Source: a virus
Strand: one strand, 5' to 3'
DNA length: 24,356 nucleotides
IMG/VR virus record: IMGVR_UViG_3300036828_000592
Span: 1-24,356 of that record
In this document: positions 5,995 to 23,367 of the stretch, one piece after another
How the letters are laid out: each line of letters starts with the position of its first letter
Numbering within the stretch: the stretch's first letter is position 1
Translations under genes and position numbers: made by a program
The notes under the pieces: model-generated
What the model saw: only the letters and a program-made list of their open reading frames with translations
Told to the model about the DNA's origin: nothing
The model's database searches: none

Positions 5995-6378
5995 ATGTCT
6001 GGTCCCGCTTATTACACCGGTACGATGAACATCGCGATGAACGATGATTGGATCGTGCCGTTCCTCTATGAATCCCTCGGTAGCGATGGCGTCACCTTGA
6101 CGCCGATCGATCTCACCGGGTCGACGTTGATGATGGAAGTCAGAACAAGCGAGAGTGATCACAACGTCGCCGTCTCAGTGTCATCGTCTCCTCCTAGCAG
6201 TGGGATTCAAATCACCAATGCGACCGGTGGCATGTTCACCATCACCTTAGATCGCAATCGCTTGAGCCAATTGTCGCCGGGCAACTACGTCAGCGATCTC
6301 GTGCGGCTGATGCCGTCCGGCTGGCAAGAACGGCTCTGGGAAGGCACCGTCACCGTTGTCGAGGGCACGACGCGGTGA
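5995..6378 (+). CDS. small fibre-cluster protein, function unknown
   Basis: 127 aa. ATG at 5995 was chosen because it lies just after the tailspike stop and leaves only a short gap; a longer frame upstream would overlap the tailspike gene. The sequence is beta-rich (an [13 protein letters not shown] strand near the start, an [11 protein letters not shown] strand, then [15 protein letters not shown]) and looks like a compact Ig- or jelly-roll-like domain. Small proteins of this kind often sit between tail fibre genes in Rhizobiales phages, possibly as fibre adaptors, but I do not recognise a named family. Its TGA overlaps the GTG start of the next fibre gene. Confidence 0.55.
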
Positions 6379-7742
6379 GCACGCAAGTTCTCACGGTCCC
6401 GCAGACTGGACCCCCCGGTCCGGTCGGACCGACTGGGCCGCAGGGCGTTCCTGGTCCGCCTGGTCCGCAGGGCCCCGGTGGCACCGGCCAGCAGGGCGAG
6501 CCGGGACCGCAGGGGCCAATCGGGCCGCAAGGCCCAGGTGGCACAGGGCCGGCGGGACCGCCGGGGCCGCAAGGGCCGACGGGGCCGCAGGGGCCGATCG
6601 GCCTGCAAGGCCAGATGGGCACCCCGGGGCCGGCAGGGCCGACTGGCGCGCCCGGCCCACAGGGCCCGGCCGGCGATATCACCGGCGCCGTGCGCTACGA
6701 TCAAACGCAGGTGCTCACGGCGCCGCAGGCGCTCACGGCCAGGCAGAACATTTTTGCCGCGCCGATCGACAGCATGATCGAGAATAATCTGATCATCAAT
6801 GGCAGCTTCAACGTCGCGCAGCAGTACGGAAGCAATGTAGTCAGCCTTGGCACCGGCAACAATTCGGTTTGGGTTCTTGACCAGTGGAACACGGTTCAGA
6901 ACAGTTCGGTGATGACCTCCGCGTGGAATAAGCAGACGTCGAATTTTCCGTATGGCTATTCATCCGGGATCGGAGGTAGCGTCGGCACTGCCAACCCAAG
7001 TCCAGCGGCCACCGACTATCTCTCTCACCAGCAGAAGATCGATGGGGCTCAGATAGCACGACTGCAGTGGGGCTCGGGGGGCGCCCGGCCCGTGACGCTC
7101 GGCTTCTGGGTCGCGATGACCGTGCCCGGCACCTACTCGGTGACACTTCGTGACACCGTCTCGGGGCAGTGCTATCCGGCGACCTACACGATCAACGCGG
7201 CGAACACCTGGGAGTACAAGACCATCGTCATCCCGGGCTGCACCGCAGGCACCTCGTGGAGCGGTGGGCTCTTCATAGTCTTTACGCTGGTGTGCGGCTC
7301 CAACTATCTCGGAGTGCCGAACACCTGGCAGAGCGGCAACATCGTCGCCGCCAATAACACGAATAATTTTGCGGCGGTCGTCAACAACGCCTGGATCACA
7401 GGTGTGTCCCTGCTGCCGGGCAACGACGCGCCGGCCAGCGATCGCGCCCCGCTGCTGATGCGAAGCATCGCGAACGAGCAGCTGATGTGCGAGCGCTGGT
7501 TCAGATACCTGCGCGGCGTGGGCTTCTACGGCTACGCCCCGACGTCGATAACAGGCATCGGAGGCATCGTCTTTCCGGCTATGCGCAAGGCACCGGCGGT
7601 GACGTTCGCCAACACGACCTACACCAACGGCAGCGCCCTCGCATTGAACGCGGCCAGCGTGAATGCGGCAGTCGTGCAGTGGACGATAGCCGGCGCCCCT
7701 AGCTTCGTCTCAACCGACATCCTGCTCGACGCGAGGTCTTGA
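6375..7742 (+). CDS. collagen-like tail fibre protein 1
   Basis: 455 aa from GTG at 6375 (GTGA overlap with the upstream stop). Residues about 12-100 are uninterrupted Gly-X-Y collagen-like triplets, which form a rigid trimeric shaft. After a DITGAV linker comes an [10 protein letters not shown] motif typical of phage fibres, then a beta-rich C-terminal domain (about 140-455) beginning with an [13 protein letters not shown] segment that resembles carbohydrate-binding or receptor-binding fibre tips. The shaft contains 37 codons identical at DNA level to fibre 2. Together the two genes look like duplicated receptor-binding adhesins. Confidence 0.75.
6417..6527 (+). repeat. 111-bp identical direct repeat, copy 1 (fibre 1 shaft)
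   Basis: This stretch is identical by eye to 7858-7968 (offset 1441 bp). It encodes 37 residues of Gly-X-Y shaft in both fibre genes in the same frame. Sequence flanking the block diverges, including at third positions, so recent exchange rather than slow divergence is likely. Confidence 0.9.
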
Positions 7743-7743
7743 A

Positions 7744-8967
7744 GTGTCAAACGGCGGCGAGCGATTCAATCTTTCCAGCGGCACGCCGCGCATCACGCTG
7801 ATCAAGAGCGCGACGGCGGAAAATCAAACGCTGACGGTGCCGGCGCAAGGCCCGGCGGGTCCGGTCGGACCGACTGGGCCGCAGGGCGTTCCTGGTCCGC
7901 CTGGTCCGCAGGGCCCCGGTGGCACCGGCCAGCAGGGCGAGCCGGGACCGCAGGGGCCAATCGGGCCGGCGGGCGTACAAGGGCCGATAGGAAATACCGG
8001 TGCGACGGGCGCGCAGGGGCCGCAAGGCACGACCGGCGCGACCGGCGCGCAAGGGCCGATCGGAAATACGGGGCCGGCAGGGCCGACTGGCGCGACAGGG
8101 CCGCAGGGGCCGGCCGGTCCGGTGCCCGAAGCGCCGACCGACGGCGCGACCTACGGGCGATCGAATTCCGCCTGGGCGGGTGTCTTGCCGATCATTGGCG
8201 GCACGCTGACCGGGGCGCTGACGCTCAATGCCGATCCGGCATCGAACCTCCAGGCGGCGACCAAGCAGTACGCCGACCACAACGTCCGCTGGGACGCCGC
8301 GCAAGCTCTGACGGCGCCGCAGCAGGTCCAGGCGCGCGCCAACATCAACTCGTTTTCGCTGCGCACCCGCACCGTCATAACAACCGGCAGCGGCACCTAC
8401 ACGACGAAGGCCAACTGCGTTGCCATCAACGTCCGCATGGTCGGCGGCGGCGGCGGCGGCGGCGCTGGCGGCACCGGCGGCAACGATGGCTCGAACGGAA
8501 CGGCGTCGACGTTCGGATCGCTCTCGGCCGGCCCCGGCACCGGCGGCCTGCAAAGTCAAGCAGGCAAACCCGGCAGCGGTGGCATCGCATCAGGCGGCGA
8601 CGATAATCAGACCGGCGGCGCCGGCGGAAATGGTTTTACTATTCAATCAGCCTCCGCCGGCCCTGGCGGCTACGGCGGCAATAGTCTCCGTGGTGGCGCA
8701 GGCGCGTGCGGCACGGGCAACGTCGGCCCCAGTGCCGGCACGCCCAACAGCGGCGGCGGTGGTGGTGGTGGCACCTCCATCACCAGCAACCAATGCACGG
8801 GCGGCGGCGGCGGCGCTGGCGGCTATTGCGAGAAGCTGATCGTCCCGCCGGCTGCGAGCTACGCCTTTGCCGTCGGCACAGGCGGCGCCGCAGGAACCAT
8901 CGGCACAGGAAGCCAGCCTGGAGCCGCAGGCGGTTCCGGCATCATCATCATCGACGAGTATTACTGA
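7744..8967 (+). CDS. collagen-like / glycine-rich tail fibre adhesin 2
   Basis: 407 aa from GTG at 7744, 1 nt after the fibre 1 stop. Residues about 35-129 are collagen-like triplets. A helical segment follows (about 160-205, with an [11 protein letters not shown] motif common in phage fibres and an [17 protein letters not shown] motif). From about 225 the protein is a Gly-rich sandwich of short Gly runs and Ser/Thr/Asn segments, ending with a conserved strand-rich close ([10 protein letters not shown]). The Gly-rich half resembles polyglycine-II type adhesin tips known from T-even-like phages, so receptor binding is the likely role. Confidence 0.72.
7858..7968 (+). repeat. 111-bp identical direct repeat, copy 2 (fibre 2 shaft)
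   Basis: Second copy of the segment at 6417-6527, in the same codon phase. Recombination between the copies would produce a hybrid fibre with the N-terminus of fibre 1 and the tip of fibre 2, and would delete about 1.44 kb. Confidence 0.9.
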
Positions 8968-9289
8968 TGGCCTGCCGGTTCTGCCGCTCGATCGATACGC
9001 AATTGTTGTTTCCACCATTCGTAGCCCGGCGGATACCAAGATGAAATCACGCCCATCGCCGCCTCTGTCTGTTCGCGGCAGGGCGCCTCGTCGGCGAAGC
9101 ACTTGAGGCACGGGCTCGTGGCTTTGATGCTGTCACGCGGAAGGTTAATTCATCCCCGGCATGAAGGGCAAGCGGCCCAATAGGTGAGGCCGCACTGAGG
9201 TTTCGGCGCCTCGCGCGCCGTCCGACGTCCGTTGGTTCCGGCACTTGTCCTCCCGACGGACTACTCCCTGAACCTTGCCCCGGCTTCAC
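8961..9289 (-). pseudogene. possible broken Cys-rich small gene
   Basis: On the minus strand, two adjacent frames read like one real protein. Upstream, a frame closing at TGA (9150-9152) ends APKPQCGLTYWAACPSCRG. A second frame from about 9149 down to TAA at 8961-8963 contains CLKCFADEAPC and WYPPGYEWWKQQL. Neither frame has a good start. A third frame has a GTG preceded by GGGAGG and could be the original start before frameshifts. The Cys spacing suggests a small zinc-binding phage protein. It overlaps the end of fibre 2 and the terminator. I read it as a frameshifted remnant with modest confidence; it could also be two short genes with unusual starts. Confidence 0.3.
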
Positions 9290-9306
9290 AGCCGGGGCTT
9301 TTTTTT
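9277..9306 (+). terminator. intrinsic terminator of the tail operon
   Basis: A perfect 9-bp GC-rich stem (GCCCCGGCT at 9277-9285, AGCCGGGGC at 9290-9298) with a TCAC loop is followed by eight T residues at 9299-9306. It stops plus-strand transcription from the fibre genes before it runs into the convergent minus-strand tas operon. On the minus strand the T-run becomes an A-run, so it does not act in that direction. Confidence 0.93.
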
Positions 9307-9352: not shown

Positions 9353-9853
9353 TCATTGCAACGTCCCGCGCGGCGGCAGCATGCCGACCATCCGGCCTTC
9401 CGACTGGAGCGCAGCGCCACGCGGTTCGATCAGCACCTCAAGCGGCGCCAGGTAGGGTCTCTGATTGGCCGGCCGCATGATGCGGCGGTGCGCCACGATC
9501 TGTCCGCAGTCCCGATCCTCGCCCTGGATCACGACAACCTCAACCCGGTCAGGATGCGATGCAACGCCGTGCCGGTAGATCGAGTCCAGCTCTGCCTTGT
9601 CGTTGATAGCGCGCTCGATGGTCCACGCCTCATCAACGAAAACATAGCGCACCACATCCTTTGTTTTGAAAAAAGCGCGGACCATGGCGACGCACGTGTC
9701 TTTGCCGAGAAACGACGGCGGCTCCACATCAAACTTCTCGCCGCTCGCCGAGACCGCAAACCACATCGGAGCTACCATCCCTGTCCCGCGGAATGCGACG
9801 TCGCATGCGCGAGAGGTGACGGCGATCATCTTGCGTAGCTCTTTTTCGCTCAT
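9353..9853 (-). CDS. unknown protein at the 3' end of the tas-like operon
   Basis: 166 aa. ATG at 9853 was chosen because GGAGG lies about 7 nt upstream; an in-frame TTG 6 nt earlier is less likely. I do not recognise the family. It is a mixed alpha/beta soluble protein: an N-terminal helix (SEKELRKMIAV), strands around APMWFAVSASG, a helix with CVAMVRAFFKT, the strand-rich VVRYVFVDEAW, then RVEVVVIQGED near residue 110. No membrane segment or recognisable catalytic motif is seen. It is the last gene of the minus-strand operon and is separated from the tas-like gene only by a solitary guide-array unit. That placement links it to the system, perhaps as an accessory factor, but this is inference. 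Confidence 0.7.
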   Translation of the reverse strand: MSEKELRKMIAVTSRACDVAFRGTGMVAPMWFAVSASGEKFDVEPPSFLGKDTCVAMVRAFFKTKDVVRYVFVDEAWTIERAINDKAELDSIYRHGVASHPDRVEVVVIQGEDRDCGQIVAHRRIMRPANQRPYLAPLEVLIEPRGAALQSEGRMVGMLPPRGTLQ

Positions 9854-9875: not shown

Positions 9876-9973
9876 GTGAGCCCGGCACACTTAACGTGGG
9901 CATCACTTGGGAAGTGGCCGGGCTCGACGGTCGCATCACGTCCTTGGGCTTCAGTGCGCTATTGGCGACCGCA
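9876..9973 (-). repeat. solitary double-hairpin guide unit (U1) downstream of the tas-like gene
   Basis: Same architecture as the main array, placed exactly in the gap between the tas-like stop (9977) and the next start (9853). Stem 1 arms are at 9878-9886 and 9917-9925, stem 2 arms at 9927-9934 and 9965-9972. Plus-strand 9-mers are cacttaacg and cttgggaag in loop 1 (core tgggcatca), and tcacgtcct and gtgcgctat in loop 2 (core tgggcttca). The first base of the stem 2 left arm is A instead of G, which becomes a G-U pair in a minus-strand RNA. Because it lies outside any ORF, it argues that the element works as RNA or DNA rather than as coding sequence. Confidence 0.9.
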
Positions 9974-9976
9974 ACT

Positions 9977-10864
9977 CTATGCTGCTGGACGACGGTCAAG
10001 CGCGCGCTTTTTCGCCTTTGCCTGGACCGGCTTCTTCGCCTTCGCCGACTTCACCTTCGGCTCGACCGGCTGCACGGTGGGATTCTTCCACTCGACCAAC
10101 AAGTCGATGAGGAATTGCTTCATCGCAATGCGAATCCCGTCCATGCGGCGGTGGCCATCGGACCAATCCGGATGCGTTTCAATCGTGTGCTTGCGCCGCG
10201 CAGCATAAACTTCGCCATATGGGCCATTTGGTTTGCCTTCGCCGTCATCGGTCTTAGCTTTGCCGATCCACTGCGAGTTAACGAGCCATAATGCGATTTG
10301 ATGCATCAGCGCGTAACGCTCGCCCGAGAACGGATGCGCCTTCCACTCTTCGCTCGAAAGCACGCGATGCCGCCATGTTTTCCTTTTCCACGTCGAGCCA
10401 GCGAGGCCTTCAAAAGGGGCGAAACCAAGCCTCGACCAGAGCTTCGCCGGGTTCGCGTAGTTTGATAGATCGCCGGCCTCGGCCACGATCGTCGCCAGCC
10501 CGAGCGCGCCGGCACCATGCACGCTCACGATCCATGGGTAGACCGGGAGCTGCATCGCCAGTTCCGCGATGCGGGCCTCGGTTGCCTCCCGGCTATCATC
10601 AGCCGGCGCGCGCGCCTTGTCGCTCACCATCACCGTATCGGCGTATTCGTGATCTGCTCCAGCGCGGATCGCCTTGATGGTCGCGCGGACTTCCTTGTTG
10701 ATTTGCGCGCGCTCGGCCTCGCTCATCTCTGGGTGCCACTCGGTCGTGTTGATGCGTAAGAAGCTCTCGAGCGCGCGATCGAGCTTCTGTTGTATCTTCA
10801 TTGCGAACCGGCGACGCCGATGATGTCGGCGGATTTCGTTGATGATCTCTTCAGTTGTAGCCAT
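9977..10864 (-). CDS. Tas-like protein with IS110 Transposase_20 / Nop-like core
   Basis: 295 aa. ATG at 10864 was chosen for the GAGGAG about 8 nt upstream; longer upstream frames run through array unit U2. Residues 1-105 are helical and charged, like the coiled-coil part of IS110 proteins. Residues about 107-200 match the Transposase_20 pattern: VHGAGALGLATIVAEAGD (helix-hairpin-helix), then LSNYANPAKLWSRLGFAPFEG, with a serine in LAGSTWKRK where IS110 enzymes carry their SG motif. Residues 216-260 contain YGEVYAARRKHTIETHPDW and a final helix. Residues 268-292 are a Lys/Arg-rich tail. No RuvC DEDD domain or clear HNH is seen. With guide-like array units on both sides, this fits a TIGR-associated (Tas) RNA-guided protein, probably nuclease-less. 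A domesticated IS110 recombinase is the alternative. Confidence 0.8.
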   Translation of the reverse strand: MATTEEIINEIRRHHRRRRFAMKIQQKLDRALESFLRINTTEWHPEMSEAERAQINKEVRATIKAIRAGADHEYADTVMVSDKARAPADDSREATEARIAELAMQLPVYPWIVSVHGAGALGLATIVAEAGDLSNYANPAKLWSRLGFAPFEGLAGSTWKRKTWRHRVLSSEEWKAHPFSGERYALMHQIALWLVNSQWIGKAKTDDGEGKPNGPYGEVYAARRKHTIETHPDWSDGHRRMDGIRIAMKQFLIDLLVEWKNPTVQPVEPKVKSAKAKKPVQAKAKKRALDRRPAA

Positions 10865-10889: not shown

Positions 10890-10987
10890 GTGAGCCCGGC
10901 ACGAGCAGCTTGGGCATCAACGCACGCGTGGCCGGGCTCGGCGGTCGCATTCGCCTTATGGGCATCAACCCGGTGTTGGCGACCGCA
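10890..10987 (-). repeat. solitary double-hairpin guide unit (U2) upstream of the tas-like gene
   Basis: A complete unit fills the gap between the 201-aa gene (ends 10995) and the tas-like start (10864). Both stems are perfect (stem 1 GAGCCCGGC/GCCGGGCTC, stem 2 GCGGTCGC/GCGACCGC). Plus-strand 9-mers are cgagcagct and acgcacgcg (core tgggcatca), then ttcgcctta and acccggtgt (core tgggcatca). It would be transcribed in the leader of the tas-like gene, so it could give guides from the same mRNA or influence tas expression. Confidence 0.92.
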
Positions 10988-10994
10988 ACTCTCT

Positions 10995-11600
10995 TCATGG
11001 CGAGCTTGGCGGCCCGATCTCCTGCACATGCGCCGCGGCAACAAGGTCGCGCGCCATCTTGGCGCCGCCGTCGCGCAGCAGCTCCGCCGCGCTGATTTTC
11101 GCCTTCTCCATGATGGTGGTCACGACGCCGGGCTTGATGGCTTCCTCGACCGTGACGAACGGATCGGCGGTGACGCAATGCTTCGACAGCATAATGCAGA
11201 GGAAAGTCTCCACCGCGTCGTCGTAGCCACGCTGCAGGAAGCTTGTCGCCGTCGTCGCCGACGCCTCGGCGATCGCGTGCAGGTCGTTGATCCGGATATC
11301 GCCCAGCCGGCGGCCACCGCGCATTGGTTTATCGAAGATCGCTTTCGTGTAGATTTTCTCAGCCGCCAGCGCGCCGGCCTTCTGCGCTTTGCTCGGCATC
11401 GGTGATCGGTGCGGGCCCTCGCGCCGTCGCGATGGGGTCTCCTTCTTTCTTCTGTTGCTGAGCGGCGTGAGATAATTCGACGCGATGGCGACGCGCAGCT
11501 CGCCATCGGTCTTGAGCATGGCCGCCAACGCGTTGACCGCGGCGGTAATGGATTTATGCTCCTTGAGAAGTGCCTTTGCGCTTGCTTCGAGCTTGCTCAT
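10995..11600 (-). CDS. unknown basic protein between guide array and tas-like gene
   Basis: 201 aa. ATG at 11600 was chosen for the GAGGA 7 nt upstream; an upstream ATG would start inside the array. I do not recognise it. Residues 1-42 are predicted helical (a KALLKEHKSITAAVNALAAM stretch), residues 44-66 are strongly basic (NRRKKETPSRRR), and the rest is helical with a DDAVETFLCIMLSKHCV segment near 127-143 and a C-terminal helix before a PPSSP end. An alternative start at residue 68 (MPSKAQK) is possible. Its position between the array and the tas-like gene, on the same strand, suggests a dedicated partner, for example for RNA or DNA binding, guide processing or nuclease recruitment. No motif proves any of these. 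Confidence 0.72.
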   Translation of the reverse strand: MSKLEASAKALLKEHKSITAAVNALAAMLKTDGELRVAIASNYLTPLSNRRKKETPSRRREGPHRSPMPSKAQKAGALAAEKIYTKAIFDKPMRGGRRLGDIRINDLHAIAEASATTATSFLQRGYDDAVETFLCIMLSKHCVTADPFVTVEEAIKPGVVTTIMEKAKISAAELLRDGGAKMARDLVAAAHVQEIGPPSSP

Positions 11601-11616: not shown

Positions 11617-12942
11617 TCAAAAGTGTGAGCCCGGCACAAGGTCACTGGGCATCAGGGCTGGCATGGCCGGGCTCGGCGATCGCATCGGTTGATTGGGCCT
11701 CAAAGAGGCGTTGGCGACCGCAACAGGAATAGGTGAGCCCGGCATTGAGGTCGTGGGCCTCAACAAGACCCTGGCCGGGCTCGGCGGCCGCAGGCTCTTG
11801 CTGGGCTTCACCGAAGCGATGGCGACCGCAGTTCGAAAGGGGGAGCCCGGCACAAGATAGTTGGGCATCAGAGGCGCCCTGGCCGGGCTCGGCGGTCGCA
11901 TCGCTGACATGGGCATCAATCTTGGGATAGCGACCGCAGTTCGATTAGGTGAGCCCGGCACGCCGTCACCGGGCGTCAGTCGTTCGTTGGCCGGGCTCGG
12001 CGGTCGCAAGTCATCTCTGGGCTTCACAAGCTCGCTGGCGACCGCAATAGGGAGAAGGGGTGAGCCCGGCACGCCGCCTCTGGGCTTCATCAGGAGGTTG
12101 GCCGGGCTCGGCGGTCGCAATTGATTCCTGGGCATCATTCCGCCGGTGGCGACCGCATTCGAAAAAAAAGGTGAGCCCGGCACTCCCATTCTGGGTTTCA
12201 GGGCGGCCCTGGCCGGGCTCGGCGGTCGCAGGGGCCCGATGGGGCTCAAGGTCCGAATGGCGACCGCAACGTGAATAAGGGAGCCCGGCACAAAAGTCCT
12301 GGGCTTCAGGTGCAGATTGGCCGGGCTCGGCGGTCGCAGCCGAGGTATGGGATTCACGGCTCGCTTGGCGACCGCATTCGGTTTGATAGGTGAGCCCGGC
12401 ATCCTCGTAGTGGGCATCACGGCATCGATGGCCGGGCTCGGCGGTCGCAATTTCCTTTTGGGCTTCACGTAGCCATTGGCGACCGCATTCTCGTTGATAG
12501 ATGAGCCCGGCAAAACGTCATTGGGCATCATGACTATTCCGGCCGGGCTCGGCGGTCGCACGGTGTACCTGGGCTTCAGACCCGCGATGGCGACCGCAAC
12601 TTGATGAAGAGGTGAGCCCGGCATCCGGTTTCTGGGTTCCAAGGTCTGCCTAGCCGGGCTCGGCAGTCGCAAGCGAGCCGAGGGCTTCACTTCATCTATG
12701 GCGACCGCATTCTGATTGAAGGGTGAGCCCGGCAATCCATTTCTGGACATCAACGTCATCGTGGCCGGGCTCGGCGGTCGCAAGGCCAGGATGGATTTCA
12801 CGGGAACGCTGGCGACCGCATTCGAGATGAAAGGTGAGCCCGGCATCTTGCCCTTGGGTTTCATGGTCATGATGGCCGGGCTCGGCGGTCGCAAGATCGC
12901 GATGGGTTTCATCGGGCGGATGGCGACCGCATTCGAATTCAT
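11617..12942 (-). other. 441-codon open frame running through the whole array
   Basis: The minus strand is open from ATG at 12942 to a stop at 11617-11619. The frame encodes a periodic Pro-rich peptide with a conserved NAVA-(3-4)-KP-(3-4)-RPPSPA-(4)-KP-(4)-PGSP pattern every 36-37 residues. Its ATG overlaps the TGA of the upstream 73-aa ORF (ATGA), and AGAGG lies about 10 nt upstream. All 11 linkers are 10 or 13 nt, so the frame is never lost. Against a protein role, isolated units occur outside ORFs, and three of the stem substitutions inspected change amino acids while keeping RNA pairing. One reading is that ribosomes traverse the array to prevent premature (Rho-type) termination, or that the frame is fortuitous. 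Confidence 0.35.
11625..12931 (-). repeat. TIGR-like guide array: 12 double-hairpin units, 24 modules, 48 nine-nt spacers
   Basis: Unit starts are 11625, 11733, 11841, 11949, 12060, 12171, 12279, 12390, 12501, 12612, 12723 and 12834; each body is 98 bp, linkers 10 or 13 nt. On the plus strand each unit is GAGCCCGGC-A, 9-mer, core, 9-mer, TG-GCCGGGCTC, then GCGGTCGC-A, 9-mer, core, 9-mer, TG-GCGACCGC. Nine-mers per unit, loop 1 pair; loop 2 pair: caaggtcac gggctggca; tcggttgat aagaggcgt | ttgaggtcg acaagaccc; ggctcttgc ccgaagcga | caagatagt gaggcgccc; tcgctgaca atcttggga | cgccgtcac gtcgttcgt; agtcatctc caagctcgc | cgccgcctc tcaggaggt; attgattcc ttccgccgg | ctcccattc gggcggccc; ggggcccga aggtccgaa | caaaagtcc ggtgcagat; gccgaggta cggctcgct | tcctcgtag cggcatcga; atttccttt cgtagccat | aaacgtcat tgactattc; cggtgtacc gacccgcga | tccggtttc aggtctgcc; agcgagccg cttcatcta | atccatttc acgtcatcg; aggccagga cgggaacgc | tcttgccct tggtcatga; agatcgcga tcgggcgga. 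No 9-mer recurs. The minus-strand core consensus is TGANGCCCA. Stem substitutions preserve pairing only on the minus strand, matching the strand of the neighbouring tas-like gene. Confidence 0.95.
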
Positions 12943-13360: not shown

Positions 13361-13819
13361 TGGGGCGTCCCTTTTGGTCAGCGCCCGTTTTTGAGCCCCG
13401 TTACCCGCGCCCGTCTAGTGTGCACGGGGCTGCACCGACGTGCATGTGTCCAGTTTCCCATGGATTATTTTTGTGGTTCGCTGCGGGGTCGGACCGGCCG
13501 CGGCGCCTCGTTTTGGGCGGCCGCGTAAGGGACGGGTACCAGGAAGTGACTTGGATTTGTAAGTCGTTGATTTTGCAGGGTGGTTTCGCAGAGGCTCAAC
13601 CCATAAAAGTGGGGTGCGCGGGGGTGCTCTGACCTCACCATGTGTCCAATCTGGCCCATCCTAAGCCATCGGAATACCTCGACATTTTCAGCATTTTTCA
13701 TGCACCGGAATGCGCCGGGGTGCTTGCGTATACCCATGCGTCTCGCTAAATATATGGGGAACGGTCAGGGTCGGTTTTCGCCCCGATCAGGGACTCAAGA
13801 AAACGAAGGAGAACGAAAA
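13361..13819 (+). other. divergent xis-int control region, possible attP
   Basis: 459 bp without a convincing gene. It should hold the minus-strand promoter for the xis/array/tas operon and the plus-strand integrase promoter. An AT-rich TAAATATAT lies at about 13747-13755, 65-70 nt before the integrase start, and could be a -10 region. A 10-bp direct repeat, catgtgtcca, at 13443-13452 and 13639-13648 might be an integrase or Xis arm site. Several G/C-rich inverted stretches are present. I cannot identify the attachment core without the host sequence, and no tRNA 3' end is evident. Confidence 0.4.
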
Positions 13820-15070
13820 GTGAGCATCCACAAATTGACGGCTACCAAGGTCGACCGGCTGATCCAAGGGCGCAAGCTCGGCAAGCACAGCGACGGCGGC
13901 GGCCTGTACCTGCGGGTCGACGAGGGCGCCGATGGCGGCACGCTCTCGTCCTGGGTTTATCGCTACCAGCGCGGCGGAGGCGATACCATGATGGGCATCG
14001 GCCCCACCCATATGTACGATCTTGAAGCCGCGCGCGAGCGAGCCCGGAAGGCGCGCGTTGACGTCGCGGAAGGCCGAGACCCGAGGACCGGCGTCAAGGT
14101 CGGCGGCACCAGCAAGACCTTCGCCGAATGCGCCGACGAGTGGTTCCCGAAATATCGGGCAGACCTCTCGGGAGCCAAGGGCGCCAACGATCTAAAGGTC
14201 GCCTTTGAAGCCTACGTCTACCCTGTGCTGGGCTCAGTTCCGGTCGACGCGATCGACCATCACCTCGTCCTCAAGGTGGTCGAGCCGATCTGGCTGACGC
14301 GTCGCAAGCTCGCCCCGGCACTACGCGGCAAGATCGAGAAAATTCTGGAGTACGCAAAAACCCGCGGCTACCGCACGGGTGACAACCCGGCGCAATGGTC
14401 GCTGCTGTCGACGGTGCTGCCGTCGGCTTCCTACGTCCCCAAGAACCATGCTGCTCTGCCTGATGCCGACTTGCCGGCCTTCATGATCGAGCTGCGCAAG
14501 GAGACGGGCGTTGCGGCGCGCGCGCTCGAGTTCTCCATCCTGACCGCCTGCCGGACGGGCGACATCAAGGGCGGCGATCAGTCGGATGCCGAGCCGCGGC
14601 CGCCGATGCAGTGGTCGCACATCGATTTCGAGGCGCGCTGCTGGAGCATCCCGATCACCAAGAACGGGTTGAAGCACAAAATCCCGCTCTCCGATCGCGC
14701 GATCGCCATCCTCAAAGAGATGCGCGGCTACGGGCTTGATGACCAGCTCGTGTTCCCCTCGCTCGACAATCCAGGCCGGCCGATGTCCCATCGCGCCCTG
14801 CCGGCGGTGCTCAAGCGCATGGGGCGCGCCGGCCAAGTCACGGTCCACGGGTTCCGCGCGACCTTCAAGACGTGGGCGGAAACGCGGAAGCCGAATAAAT
14901 TCGACGAGCGTGTTGTCGAGGCTGCGCTCGCGCATACTCCGGAAAAACTCCGCAAGGCATATTTCCGGAACGACCATTACGACGACCGCATCCCGCTGAT
15001 GGCGGCGTGGGCGGCTTACGCGAACGGCGGCGCGCAGATCATTCCGTTCCGCAGCGCAGAGGTGGCGTGA
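13820..15070 (+). CDS. int: tyrosine recombinase integrase (P4-like, DUF4102 N-terminus)
   Basis: 416 aa from GTG at 13820, selected because AAGGAG lies 9 nt upstream; an in-frame ATG at 13640 lacks a site. Residues 1-90 are the arm-binding DUF4102-like domain (KVDRLIQGRKLGKHSDGGG, YLRV). Residues about 100-200 are the SAM-like core-binding domain. The catalytic domain has R245 in ILTACRTGDI, K281 in ITKNGLKHKIPL, H343/R346 in VHGFRATF, H372 in ALAHTPEKL and nucleophile Y381 in RKAYFR, so all key residues are present and it should be active. It integrates and, with the divergent Xis-like protein, excises the phage genome. It is immediately followed by a partial duplicate of its N-terminus. 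Confidence 0.95.
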   Translation: MSIHKLTATKVDRLIQGRKLGKHSDGGGLYLRVDEGADGGTLSSWVYRYQRGGGDTMMGIGPTHMYDLEAARERARKARVDVAEGRDPRTGVKVGGTSKTFAECADEWFPKYRADLSGAKGANDLKVAFEAYVYPVLGSVPVDAIDHHLVLKVVEPIWLTRRKLAPALRGKIEKILEYAKTRGYRTGDNPAQWSLLSTVLPSASYVPKNHAALPDADLPAFMIELRKETGVAARALEFSILTACRTGDIKGGDQSDAEPRPPMQWSHIDFEARCWSIPITKNGLKHKIPLSDRAIAILKEMRGYGLDDQLVFPSLDNPGRPMSHRALPAVLKRMGRAGQVTVHGFRATFKTWAETRKPNKFDERVVEAALAHTPEKLRKAYFRNDHYDDRIPLMAAWAAYANGGAQIIPFRSAEVA

Positions 15071-21948: not shown

Positions 21949-22567
21949 CGAGATCGAAGCCGAAGCGGCCTTCATCCGGCATTTGATTGATACCGCAAAC
22001 CCGACCGGCGGCCAGCATACGCCGACGCCGTGGCAAAAGGCGCGCTCCCGGGAGATTTTCAGTATTGCAAGAGCCGACGACATCGGGGCCTTGATCGCCA
22101 ATTTTCTGAACGAAGCCGACCGCGATCTCGCGCTCTATTTCGTCAATGCCCACGCCGGCATCCTGGCGCTGCTGCGCTCGCAAGCCGATGCCTTCGGCTT
22201 CGTTGCCATGGCCACGGCTGACGAAGGCTTGCGCGAGTACGCCTACAACATGGCCGAGCTTGGCCGCACCTATCAGGCCGGCTTCGCCAGCATGGGCGAG
22301 ACCTTCGCGCAAGCCAAAGCGCCCGAGCCGGAACCGGAGCATACCTATCCGAGCAGGGACGACCCGCGCGTGCCGGACGCCTCGCCGGCCCTCGTCGCGG
22401 CATTCGCCGTGATGGACTTGCTCAAGCCCGGCGCGATCAGCCACACGGCGCGCGTCTATTTGGCCGGCATCATCCAAGGGCTGATCGAAAGCGCTTATGA
22501 GCAAGGCGCCGACGGCGAGCGGCTGCAATTCGAGCGGTCGCCGATTTGGCCGAGGCCATCGGAATGA
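21935..22567 (+). CDS. Ead/Ea22-like early phage protein (210 aa)
   Basis: An N-terminal helix with DEIEAEAAFIRHLIDTA is followed by HTPTPWQKARSREIFSIARA and DDIGALIANFLNEADRDLAL. The HTPTPW...I...A...D pattern occurs in many phage early proteins of the Ead/Ea22-like or small hypothetical group. The rest is helix-rich and ends with a Pro/Glu-rich linker plus a final helical block. The role in phage biology is unknown. Its end overlaps the next gene (ATGA). Confidence 0.6.
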   Translation: MITRDEIEAEAAFIRHLIDTANPTGGQHTPTPWQKARSREIFSIARADDIGALIANFLNEADRDLALYFVNAHAGILALLRSQADAFGFVAMATADEGLREYAYNMAELGRTYQAGFASMGETFAQAKAPEPEPEHTYPSRDDPRVPDASPALVAAFAVMDLLKPGAISHTARVYLAGIIQGLIESAYEQGADGERLQFERSPIWPRPSE

Positions 22568-23367
22568 GGTTCGACGCAAAAGACATCGCAGGCCTGCCGG
22601 TCAAGACGGCGCGCGACCTGATGCGATTGTTCCTCAAATACCGCATCGATGCGAAGACGGTGCTGGATTTCCTCAATGAGCGGCATTGGCGAGCCACGGT
22701 TGATGCCGCCCGCGCGGCCGACCCGAGCATCCCGAAAGAGGTTCGAGAGTATGACTATGCCTACAAACGAATGTGTGAAATCTGGGGCTTCAAATTCAAG
22801 CCGATCAAGCCCGCCGAAGCCGAGCGGCTGATCGCTGCGTTGCTTGCCGAAGGCTATCTTGAACCGCATAAACCGAAGGCCGAGTGGGATACGCGCGAAT
22901 TCGAACTCAGTCGGAAGGGGCGCCAGCTCGCGGCTGCGAATCTGCTAAAACGCTTGGACCGCGCCAAGGCTGATAAAGAGATTGCAGACCTTATTGCACG
23001 CGCCAATGAGATCAACGCGCGCGACGAGCTGATATATTTCGTGCGCAAGATCATCGTGTTTGGATCGTACCTGACCGACGGCAGCGATTTCGGCGACATC
23101 GATCTCGTGGTCACGATTTCGCCGCGCCGGCCCGGCCGCATCATTAAAGAAAGCCAGCGTCGTGCCGACATCGGAGGCAAAGGATTGGATTGGCGTGGAA
23201 GCCACTACTACTGCGAAAACGAAGTCCTGCGGTTGTTGCGGGCGCGCAAGGCGCGGCTATCGTTCAATGCGGAAGTTTCTTTTGAGCAAATCAAAACCGA
23301 ATCCCGGTCGCTGTTCGAATGGGAGCCAGACGCCAAGCGTCGGGCCGAGATGGAGCGATTCCGATGA
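22564..23367 (+). CDS. nucleotidyltransferase-fold protein with HTH-like N-terminus
   Basis: 267 aa; ATG at 22564 was chosen for its ATGA overlap with the upstream stop. Residues about 60-130 look like a winged helix (KPAEAERLIAALLAEGYLEP, then FELSRKGRQLAAANLL). Residues 163-184 carry a minimal nucleotidyltransferase signature: FGSYLTDGSDFGDIDLVV, with G167-S168 and Asp178/Asp180 as metal ligands. The HTH-plus-NTase fusion could modify a nucleic acid or protein by adding nucleotides, as toxin/antitoxin and antiviral NTases of this fold do, or regulate transcription. No partner gene of a classical MNT/HEPN pair is seen nearby. Confidence 0.78.
   Translation: MRFDAKDIAGLPVKTARDLMRLFLKYRIDAKTVLDFLNERHWRATVDAARAADPSIPKEVREYDYAYKRMCEIWGFKFKPIKPAEAERLIAALLAEGYLEPHKPKAEWDTREFELSRKGRQLAAANLLKRLDRAKADKEIADLIARANEINARDELIYFVRKIIVFGSYLTDGSDFGDIDLVVTISPRRPGRIIKESQRRADIGGKGLDWRGSHYYCENEVLRLLRARKARLSFNAEVSFEQIKTESRSLFEWEPDAKRRAEMERFR

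What the first reader, a model, noticed from the sequence alone, without database searches (positions are those of the whole stretch)
11625..12931. Stem substitutions preserve pairing only in a minus-strand RNA
Stem 1 is invariant in all 14 units. Stem 2 has four base changes, each in one arm only: A at 9927, A at 11679, C at 11788 and A at 12665 (plus strand). On the plus strand every one gives an A-C mismatch; on the minus strand every one gives a G-U wobble. A fifth change, at the loop-closing pair of the unit at 12501 (C at 12540), also becomes G-U on the minus strand. This is direct evidence that the transcribed strand is minus and that the hairpin is selected as RNA.
Basis: seen in the sequence. 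Interest (0 to 1): 0.75.

Follow-up and report, generated by a model that had tools for sequence, protein, structure and literature searches.

The report
Phage TIGR-type dual-spacer guide RNA array

Summary
In detail: all five bases are as described, and both stem inventories are complete. The strand claim is right. The claim of "direct evidence" is too strong: five of five one-way changes are weak alone (1/32), and fold energy prefers the plus strand in 10 of 14 units.

Read on the minus strand, every hairpin loop is CCA-N9-UG-NNNN-CCA-N9-UG: the box C / spacer A / box D / loop repeat / box C / spacer B / box D anatomy of tigRNAs (TIGR-Tas, PMC12045711). UG is kept in 28/28 and 28/28 places, CCA in 25/28 and 26/28. 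The gene between array parts (9980-10864 -) is a Tas protein without a nuclease domain: profile E=1.8e-9 to TasR; the predicted fold's best hits are TasR and TasH.

Relatives show strong stem covariation, G-U over A-C on this strand (38 vs 14), arrays on the tas strand in 26 of 26 loci, and no reading-frame constraint.

New in my reading: hairpins come in dyads (93 of 101 intervals alternate); an unknown partner gene B stands by tasA in 24 of 24 loci; recT and integrase genes lie nearby. No DNA target was found.

The parts
11627..12930 (-). Main TIGR stem-loop array: 12 dyads, 24 hairpins, spacing 108 or 111
10892..10986 (-). Single dyad between gene B and tasA, ends 27 nt before the tasA ATG
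9878..9972 (-). Single dyad between tasA and gene D, ends 24 nt before the gene D ATG
9977..10864 (-). tasA-like gene, 295 aa, solo Nop domain
   Evidence: PF02371 E=4.9e-4, just under the curated cut-off; profile to 9mty TasR E=1.8e-9 and to TasH E=3.5e-4; fold
10995..11600 (-). gene B, 201 aa, helical, no known family; partner of tasA in 24 of 24 loci
9353..9850 (-). gene D, unknown; relatives in L138 (tas operon) and L025
12939..13184 (-). gene A, 81 aa, unknown, upstream of the main array
11679..11679 (-). Stem 2 change, G-U on minus
11788..11788 (-). Stem 2 change, G-U on minus
12665..12665 (-). Stem 2 change, G-U on minus
9927..9927 (-). Stem 2 change at the outermost pair, G-U on minus
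12540..12540 (-). Box C change CCA to CCG, opposite the U of box D
11617..12942 (-). 441-aa open frame through the array; judged not to be a gene (rival 1)
13640..15070 (+). Tyrosine integrase, divergent from the array operon

Best explanation
The array is a TIGR stem-loop array of a temperate phage. It is transcribed from the minus strand with the genes it sits between, and cut into hairpin guide RNAs (tigRNAs). Each hairpin presents two 9-nt spacers between box C (CCA) and box D (UG). A dimer of the adjacent TasA-like Nop protein holds the boxes, and the two spacers pair with opposite strands of one target DNA site. Because this Tas protein has no nuclease domain, the likely outcome is programmed DNA binding, bending or blocking, perhaps in the service of phage recombination or integration, helped by the unknown partner gene B. 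Shown here by sequence and predicted fold: array anatomy, Tas homology, strand, RNA-level stem conservation, partner conservation. Inferred from the published TIGR work: processing, two-strand target pairing. Pure inference: biological role and gene B function.
For: Loop anatomy CCA-N9-UG-N4-CCA-N9-UG in all 28 hairpins with few box changes; the TIGR paper has the same 'start UG, end CCA' rule, 9-nt spacers and a stem-loop subtype. Spacers hardly ever repeat: 598 distinct among 606 in 303 guides. Tas profile hits 9mty TasR at 1.8e-9 and TasH at 3.5e-4; 9MTY is the paper's TasR. AlphaFold model, pLDDT 79: Foldseek ranks 1-9 are all TasR/TasH, then IS621/ISCro4; VIA Z 15.4 TasH, 14.1 TasR, 12.4 ISCro4, 8.3 Nop5. 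Relatives: 27 tas loci, arrays in 26 of them, all 26 on the tas strand. Loop-selected hairpins, stems not used in the selection: 193 of 221 have 7 of 7 pairs, 219 of 221 at least 5.
Against: No expression or binding data. No target: 319 guides against 2.15 Mb gave no exact 18-nt dual match and no clear excess over shuffled partners. Fold energy alone favours the plus strand in 10 of 14 units. L152 has tas but no array by the strict pattern. Helical folds give middling Z easily, although the top hits stand well above the unrelated rows. Residues 150-180 and 268-295 of the model are low confidence. Pfam Transposase_20 hits only 5 of 11 members.
Confidence: 0.93

Rival explanations
1. The array is a protein-coding repeat: a 441-aa repeat protein on the minus strand, and the conserved 'stems' are conserved codons.
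For: The minus frame is open over the whole array, 0 stops against 7 and 28 in the other two minus frames; unit spacing 108/111 is a multiple of 3; 0 stops in 92 free spacer codons; its ATG overlaps the stop of gene A.
Against: In other loci the same frame has 29 stops in 1104 spacer codons, like the other frames (33/1104, 55/1656), so no avoidance. Hairpin distances elsewhere include 49, 50, 52, 62, 109, 112. Three of the four stem 2 changes alter the amino acid by my codon reading, yet keep pairing on minus. Box D is always nTG at codon positions 2-3, a nucleotide rather than an amino-acid constraint. No Pfam or PHROG hit for this frame.
Confidence: 0.03
2. The hairpins are cis-acting leader elements or RNA processing sites that control the gene just downstream, not guides.
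For: Array parts fill gaps between genes: 71 clusters, 65 with a following start, median distance 29 nt; in the window 26, 27 and 24 nt.
Against: A regulator site would not need two 9-nt stretches that differ in almost every copy while boxes and spacer length are fixed; a Nop-domain protein of the Tas family is encoded in the same operon. A second, regulatory role is not excluded.
Confidence: 0.04
3. The hairpins act as DNA (cruciform, recombination or protein-binding palindromes).
For: Covariation alone cannot tell RNA from a DNA palindrome; an integrase is close by.
Against: The one-way wobble excess 38:14 and the fixed orientation relative to tas in 26 of 26 are not expected of DNA palindromes.
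Confidence: 0.02
4. The wobble polarity comes from C-to-T mutation bias on the transcribed operon's coding strand, without selection for pairing. This bears on the reader's argument, not on the TIGR assignment.
For: Three of four stem 2 changes are C to T on minus. It predicts the same polarity.
Against: It does not explain covariation of both arms: 94% against 55% paired; 47 distinct 6-nt arms (a set that still held a few chance genome hits). It would still imply minus-strand transcription.
Confidence: 0.25
5. It is an IS110-type transposon with bridge RNAs.
For: Transposase_20 similarity; IS621 and ISCro4 among fold hits; two-hairpin units resemble a bridge RNA.
Against: The model aligns only to residues 123-315 of the IS110-family chains and starts at model residue 3-4, so an N-terminal DEDD catalytic domain is absent. 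TasR and TasH rank above IS110 by fold. Many guides, not one.
Confidence: 0.03

Closest known systems
TIGR stem-loop array with TasA (Faure et al. 2025, PMC12045711; abstract, sections 4, 6, 7, 9, 10, 24, 44 and passages of others read)
   Same: Palindromic stems in place of edge repeats, two spacers of 8-12 nt between box C and box D, sub-arrays split by other sequence, nuclease-less Nop protein, mobile-element context.
   Different: Here stems are constant within the locus rather than variable, the loop repeat is nearly constant, hairpins come in dyads with two stem classes and a 1-nt junction, and gene B stands with tasA. The sections read describe none of these; fig. S13 could not be seen.
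Dual-repeat TIGR arrays with TasR or TasH
   Same: UG...CCA repeats, 9-nt spacers, Nop domain.
   Different: No 36-nt unit, real stems instead of short edge repeats, no RuvC or HNH domain.
IS110 recombinases with bridge RNA
   Same: Nop-like RNA-binding region; two-loop RNA.
   Different: No DEDD domain, many guides; element ends were not looked for.
Box C/D snoRNP (Nop5/Nop56/58)
   Same: Nop fold (Z about 7-8), box C/D logic.
   Different: K-turn and methylase partners were not looked for; DNA rather than RNA targeting is inferred for the TIGR kind.

Membership tests
TIGR-Tas (stem-loop array, TasA type) | Tandem units with two 8-12 nt spacers, each flanked by box C (CCA) and box D (UG) | tested here: met
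   28 hairpins, all spacers 9 nt; UG 28/28 and 28/28, CCA 25/28 and 26/28
TIGR-Tas (stem-loop array, TasA type) | Palindromic stems in the place of edge repeats | tested here: met
TIGR-Tas (stem-loop array, TasA type) | Adjacent Tas protein with Nop domain | tested here: met
TIGR-Tas (stem-loop array, TasA type) | No nuclease domain (TasA) | tested here: met
   Model residues 2-265 align with TasH from about residue 62 on, and residues 9-265 with TasR from 112 on; nothing precedes them. Prediction only.
TIGR-Tas (stem-loop array, TasA type) | Array transcribed and processed into Tas-bound RNAs | not testable with these tools
   needs small-RNA sequencing
TIGR-Tas (stem-loop array, TasA type) | Spacers pair with opposite strands of a DNA target | tested here: inconclusive
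   No target in 2.15 Mb of held phage DNA
TIGR-Tas (stem-loop array, TasA type) | Place of the protein in the Tas tree clades that carry stem-loop arrays | not tested
   the paper's sequences (table S1) were not at hand
TIGR dual-repeat array | 36-nt units with short non-hairpin edge repeats | tested here: not met
   hairpin spacing 48 and 60-63 nt, 8-9 bp stems
IS110 transposon | N-terminal DEDD/RuvC-like catalytic domain | tested here: not met
   alignment to IS621/ISCro4 covers only residues 123-315 of those chains and starts at model residue 3-4
Protein-coding tandem repeat | Reading frame kept in relatives | tested here: not met
   29 stops in 1104 codons, as in other frames

The most novel reading that the evidence does not exclude
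A TIGR lineage in which guides work in pairs. Each dyad (two hairpins of distinct stem class, 1-nt junction) is one RNA that brings together two DNA sites held by two TasA dimers, as a bridge RNA does for IS110, and, with gene B and the neighbouring RecE/RecT or integrase, steers phage recombination by RNA.
Probability: 0.12. Interest if true: 0.92.

Novelty: new variant of a known kind. Interest (0 to 1): 0.62.

Why it matters
TIGR-Tas is a newly found RNA-guided system, and its authors state that natural targets, TasA function, array growth and RNA maturation are open. These phages offer a coherent set of loci with constant stems, paired guides, a conserved partner gene, and linkage to recT and integrase genes. 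That makes three questions testable: does gene B act with TasA, are dyads cut into single hairpins, and is TasA used in phage recombination.

Tried and rejected
Rfam: no match in the window. Promoters: one sigma-70-like match, on plus, no more than in shuffles. Targets: spacers taken as A + reverse complement of B with 0-2 nt gap (geometry worked out by me from the paper's cut rules), plus control orientations. Window against itself: best 3 mismatches, no better than controls (23 of the 28 guides, those with strict boxes). In 561 kb, one cell (gap 0, 2 mismatches) had 18 against 9.5 expected; with 2.15 Mb the same cell was 53 against 48.4 and the excess vanished. One-mismatch hits for the predicted orientation were 11 against about 6 in shuffles, not significant. 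Gene B: no PDB sequence relative under E 0.4; Pfam weak hits in a few of 21 members only; no PHROG; no PADLOC; no Foldseek PDB hit under E 1 and no VIA row at Z 8 or more among 100 chains; no profile similarity to the Tas protein. Genome scan for the pattern: 100 stretches, nearly all chance or coding repeats; only L109 looked like a real hairpin, and its genome gave no tas match with A1. Of 397 genomes of that order, one has a distant tas. Integrase-based scan for related phages found only one weak relative. Loci judged near-identical to others (L142, L146, L156, L162) were left out of the 24-locus gene B count; they are included in the 26-of-26 strand count and in the 28-record counts. Genome loci L116-L135 were part of the counts and were removed.

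Full report
WHAT WAS CLAIMED AND WHAT IS THERE. All 28 hairpins of the 14 units were laid out on the minus strand: hairpin 2 arms are invariant, and hairpin 1 has four changes, all in its 3' arm, all transitions, all G-U on minus. The fifth change lies in what turns out to be box C. A single transition in a stem must give G-U on one strand and A-C on the other, so five of five is a 1/32 event one-sided. It is a hint, not direct evidence.

TEST IN RELATIVES. A stem-blind pattern (two loop repeats at fixed distances) found 25 stretches in virus contigs, and a profile of the tas protein found 27 loci. Hairpins were selected by the loop only. Of 221 distinct ones, 193 pair at 7 of 7 stem positions, and 219 at 5 or more. 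Reduced to 72 distinct arm pairs, 94% of positions pair, against 55% when arms are shuffled (highest of 1000: 62%). Cells that are not Watson-Crick are 38 G-U, 14 A-C and 16 other; p=0.0012 for G-U against A-C. Helices with exactly one odd pair: 22 G-U, 9 A-C, 4 other; without the window 19 to 9, p=0.087. By contig at the six inner pairs: 13 favour G-U, 3 favour A-C, of 34 (p=0.021). Distinct arms within a contig share ancestry and a few contigs are near-identical, so these p values are rough. Against the claim: predicted RNA energy is lower on the plus strand in 10 of 14 units, and for unit 11951 the z-score is -4.0 on plus and -2.6 on minus. Energy therefore does not name the strand.

WHAT IT IS. 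On minus each loop reads CCA-N9-UG-NNNN-CCA-N9-UG. The TIGR paper says that edge and loop repeats both start with UG and end with CCA, that spacers are 9 nt, that these boxes bind the Nop domain of Tas proteins, and that some Tas clades have stem-loop arrays with palindromes in place of edge repeats (PMC12045711: abstract, sections 4, 6, 7, 9, 10, 24 and 44 and passages of others read). On the plus strand the order of boxes is wrong. The gene at 9980-10864 (-) lies between array parts. Profile search against PDB sequences: TasR 9mty E=1.8e-9, TasH E=3.5e-4. Its AlphaFold model (mean pLDDT 79) has TasR and TasH chains as the nine best Foldseek hits, then IS110-family recombinases; by VIA, TasH Z 15.4 (rmsd 3.0 over 200 residues), TasR 14.1 (3.2 over 186), ISCro4 12.4, IS621 11.7, Nop5 8.3. 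It lacks anything in the place of the HNH, RuvC or DEDD domain, so it is TasA-like by prediction.

STRAND. In 26 of 26 tas loci with a detected array (27 loci in all; L152 had none by the strict pattern) the array is on the tas strand. The same holds in the window. This, with the box order, is better evidence for minus than the wobbles.

NOT A PROTEIN. The window frame is open over 441 codons and spacing is 108 or 111. But in relatives the same frame meets stops as often as the others: 29/1104 against 33/1104 and 55/1656. The open frame of the window (0 of 92) is then a mild chance event helped by the fixed boxes.

DYADS. Distances between neighbouring hairpins alternate short (46-53) and long (54-83): 93 of 101 neighbouring pairs of intervals alternate. 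Hairpin 1 and hairpin 2 have different stems in the window (GCGGTCGC and GAGCCCGGC) and a 1-nt junction. Array parts sit between genes; the next start codon is a median 29 nt away (65 of 71 clusters have one within 200 nt). The sections of the TIGR paper that I read do not describe dyads; its supplement was not at hand, so this may be shown there.

PARTNER AND NEIGHBOURS. A profile of gene B built from 13 members finds a gene B in 24 of 24 tas loci (the window plus 23; near-identical loci dropped); the 11 not used in training score E 3.6e-13 or better. A scan for close gene B relatives gave 8 loci, all on contigs already known to carry tasA (contig names). One distant bacterial genome (1 of 397 of the order of L109) has tasA and gene B side by side, with two hairpins upstream whose loops read CCA-N9-TG around a different, 13-nt loop repeat (read by eye). 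Gene B has no known family or fold that I could find and no profile similarity to the Tas protein. RecT (PF03837) is present in 15 of 28 records, always on the tas strand and within 9 kb of tas, in 10 of 15 within 3 kb (distances by subtraction). Six proteins of two recurrent neighbour families (9 loci each), drawn from three loci, are YqaJ/RecE-like or RecT. An integrase is found in 12 of 28 records, within 6.5 kb of tas in all 12. The window has an integrase but no RecT. Early phage genes cluster, so linkage is suggestive only. Records are fragments, and some are near duplicates.

TARGETS. See Tried and rejected: none found.

LITERATURE. Searches for TIGR-Tas or tigRNA, TasA with stem-loop or Nop domain and tandem interspaced guide RNA gave the discovery paper, a review and passing mentions (search listings and starts of abstracts only, apart from the discovery paper). 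None of the listed titles or abstract starts treats dyads, a partner like gene B or RecT linkage. The library holds open-licence papers only.

Noticed in passing
L139:4719-6604, L137:3234-5218, L144:3424-5550: RecE-like (YqaJ) and RecT genes in tas operons, with hairpins between genes in some of them.
   Followed up: partly
   Followed up: partly
L024 5587-7131, L020 10598-11902, L026 10262-11233: Tas open frames run on into array sequence at one end.
   Followed up: no
L029, L015/L143, L031/L018: A few single spacers are shared between guides while the other spacer differs (8 of 598), as if half-hairpins recombine.
   Followed up: no
window 6375-7742 and 7744-8967: Collagen-like Gly-Pro-Pro repeats in two tail-fibre-like proteins.
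   Followed up: no
window 9277-9298: Strong terminator-like hairpin with T run at the end of the plus-strand tail genes, facing the end of the minus-strand array operon.
   Followed up: no
L164-L172: Closest relatives by the baseplate protein (87-96% identity) show no array in the held DNA, as expected of an accessory module; not all of them reach the corresponding region.
   Followed up: partly
window 22546-23367: Nucleotidyltransferase-fold protein (PF01909).
   Followed up: no
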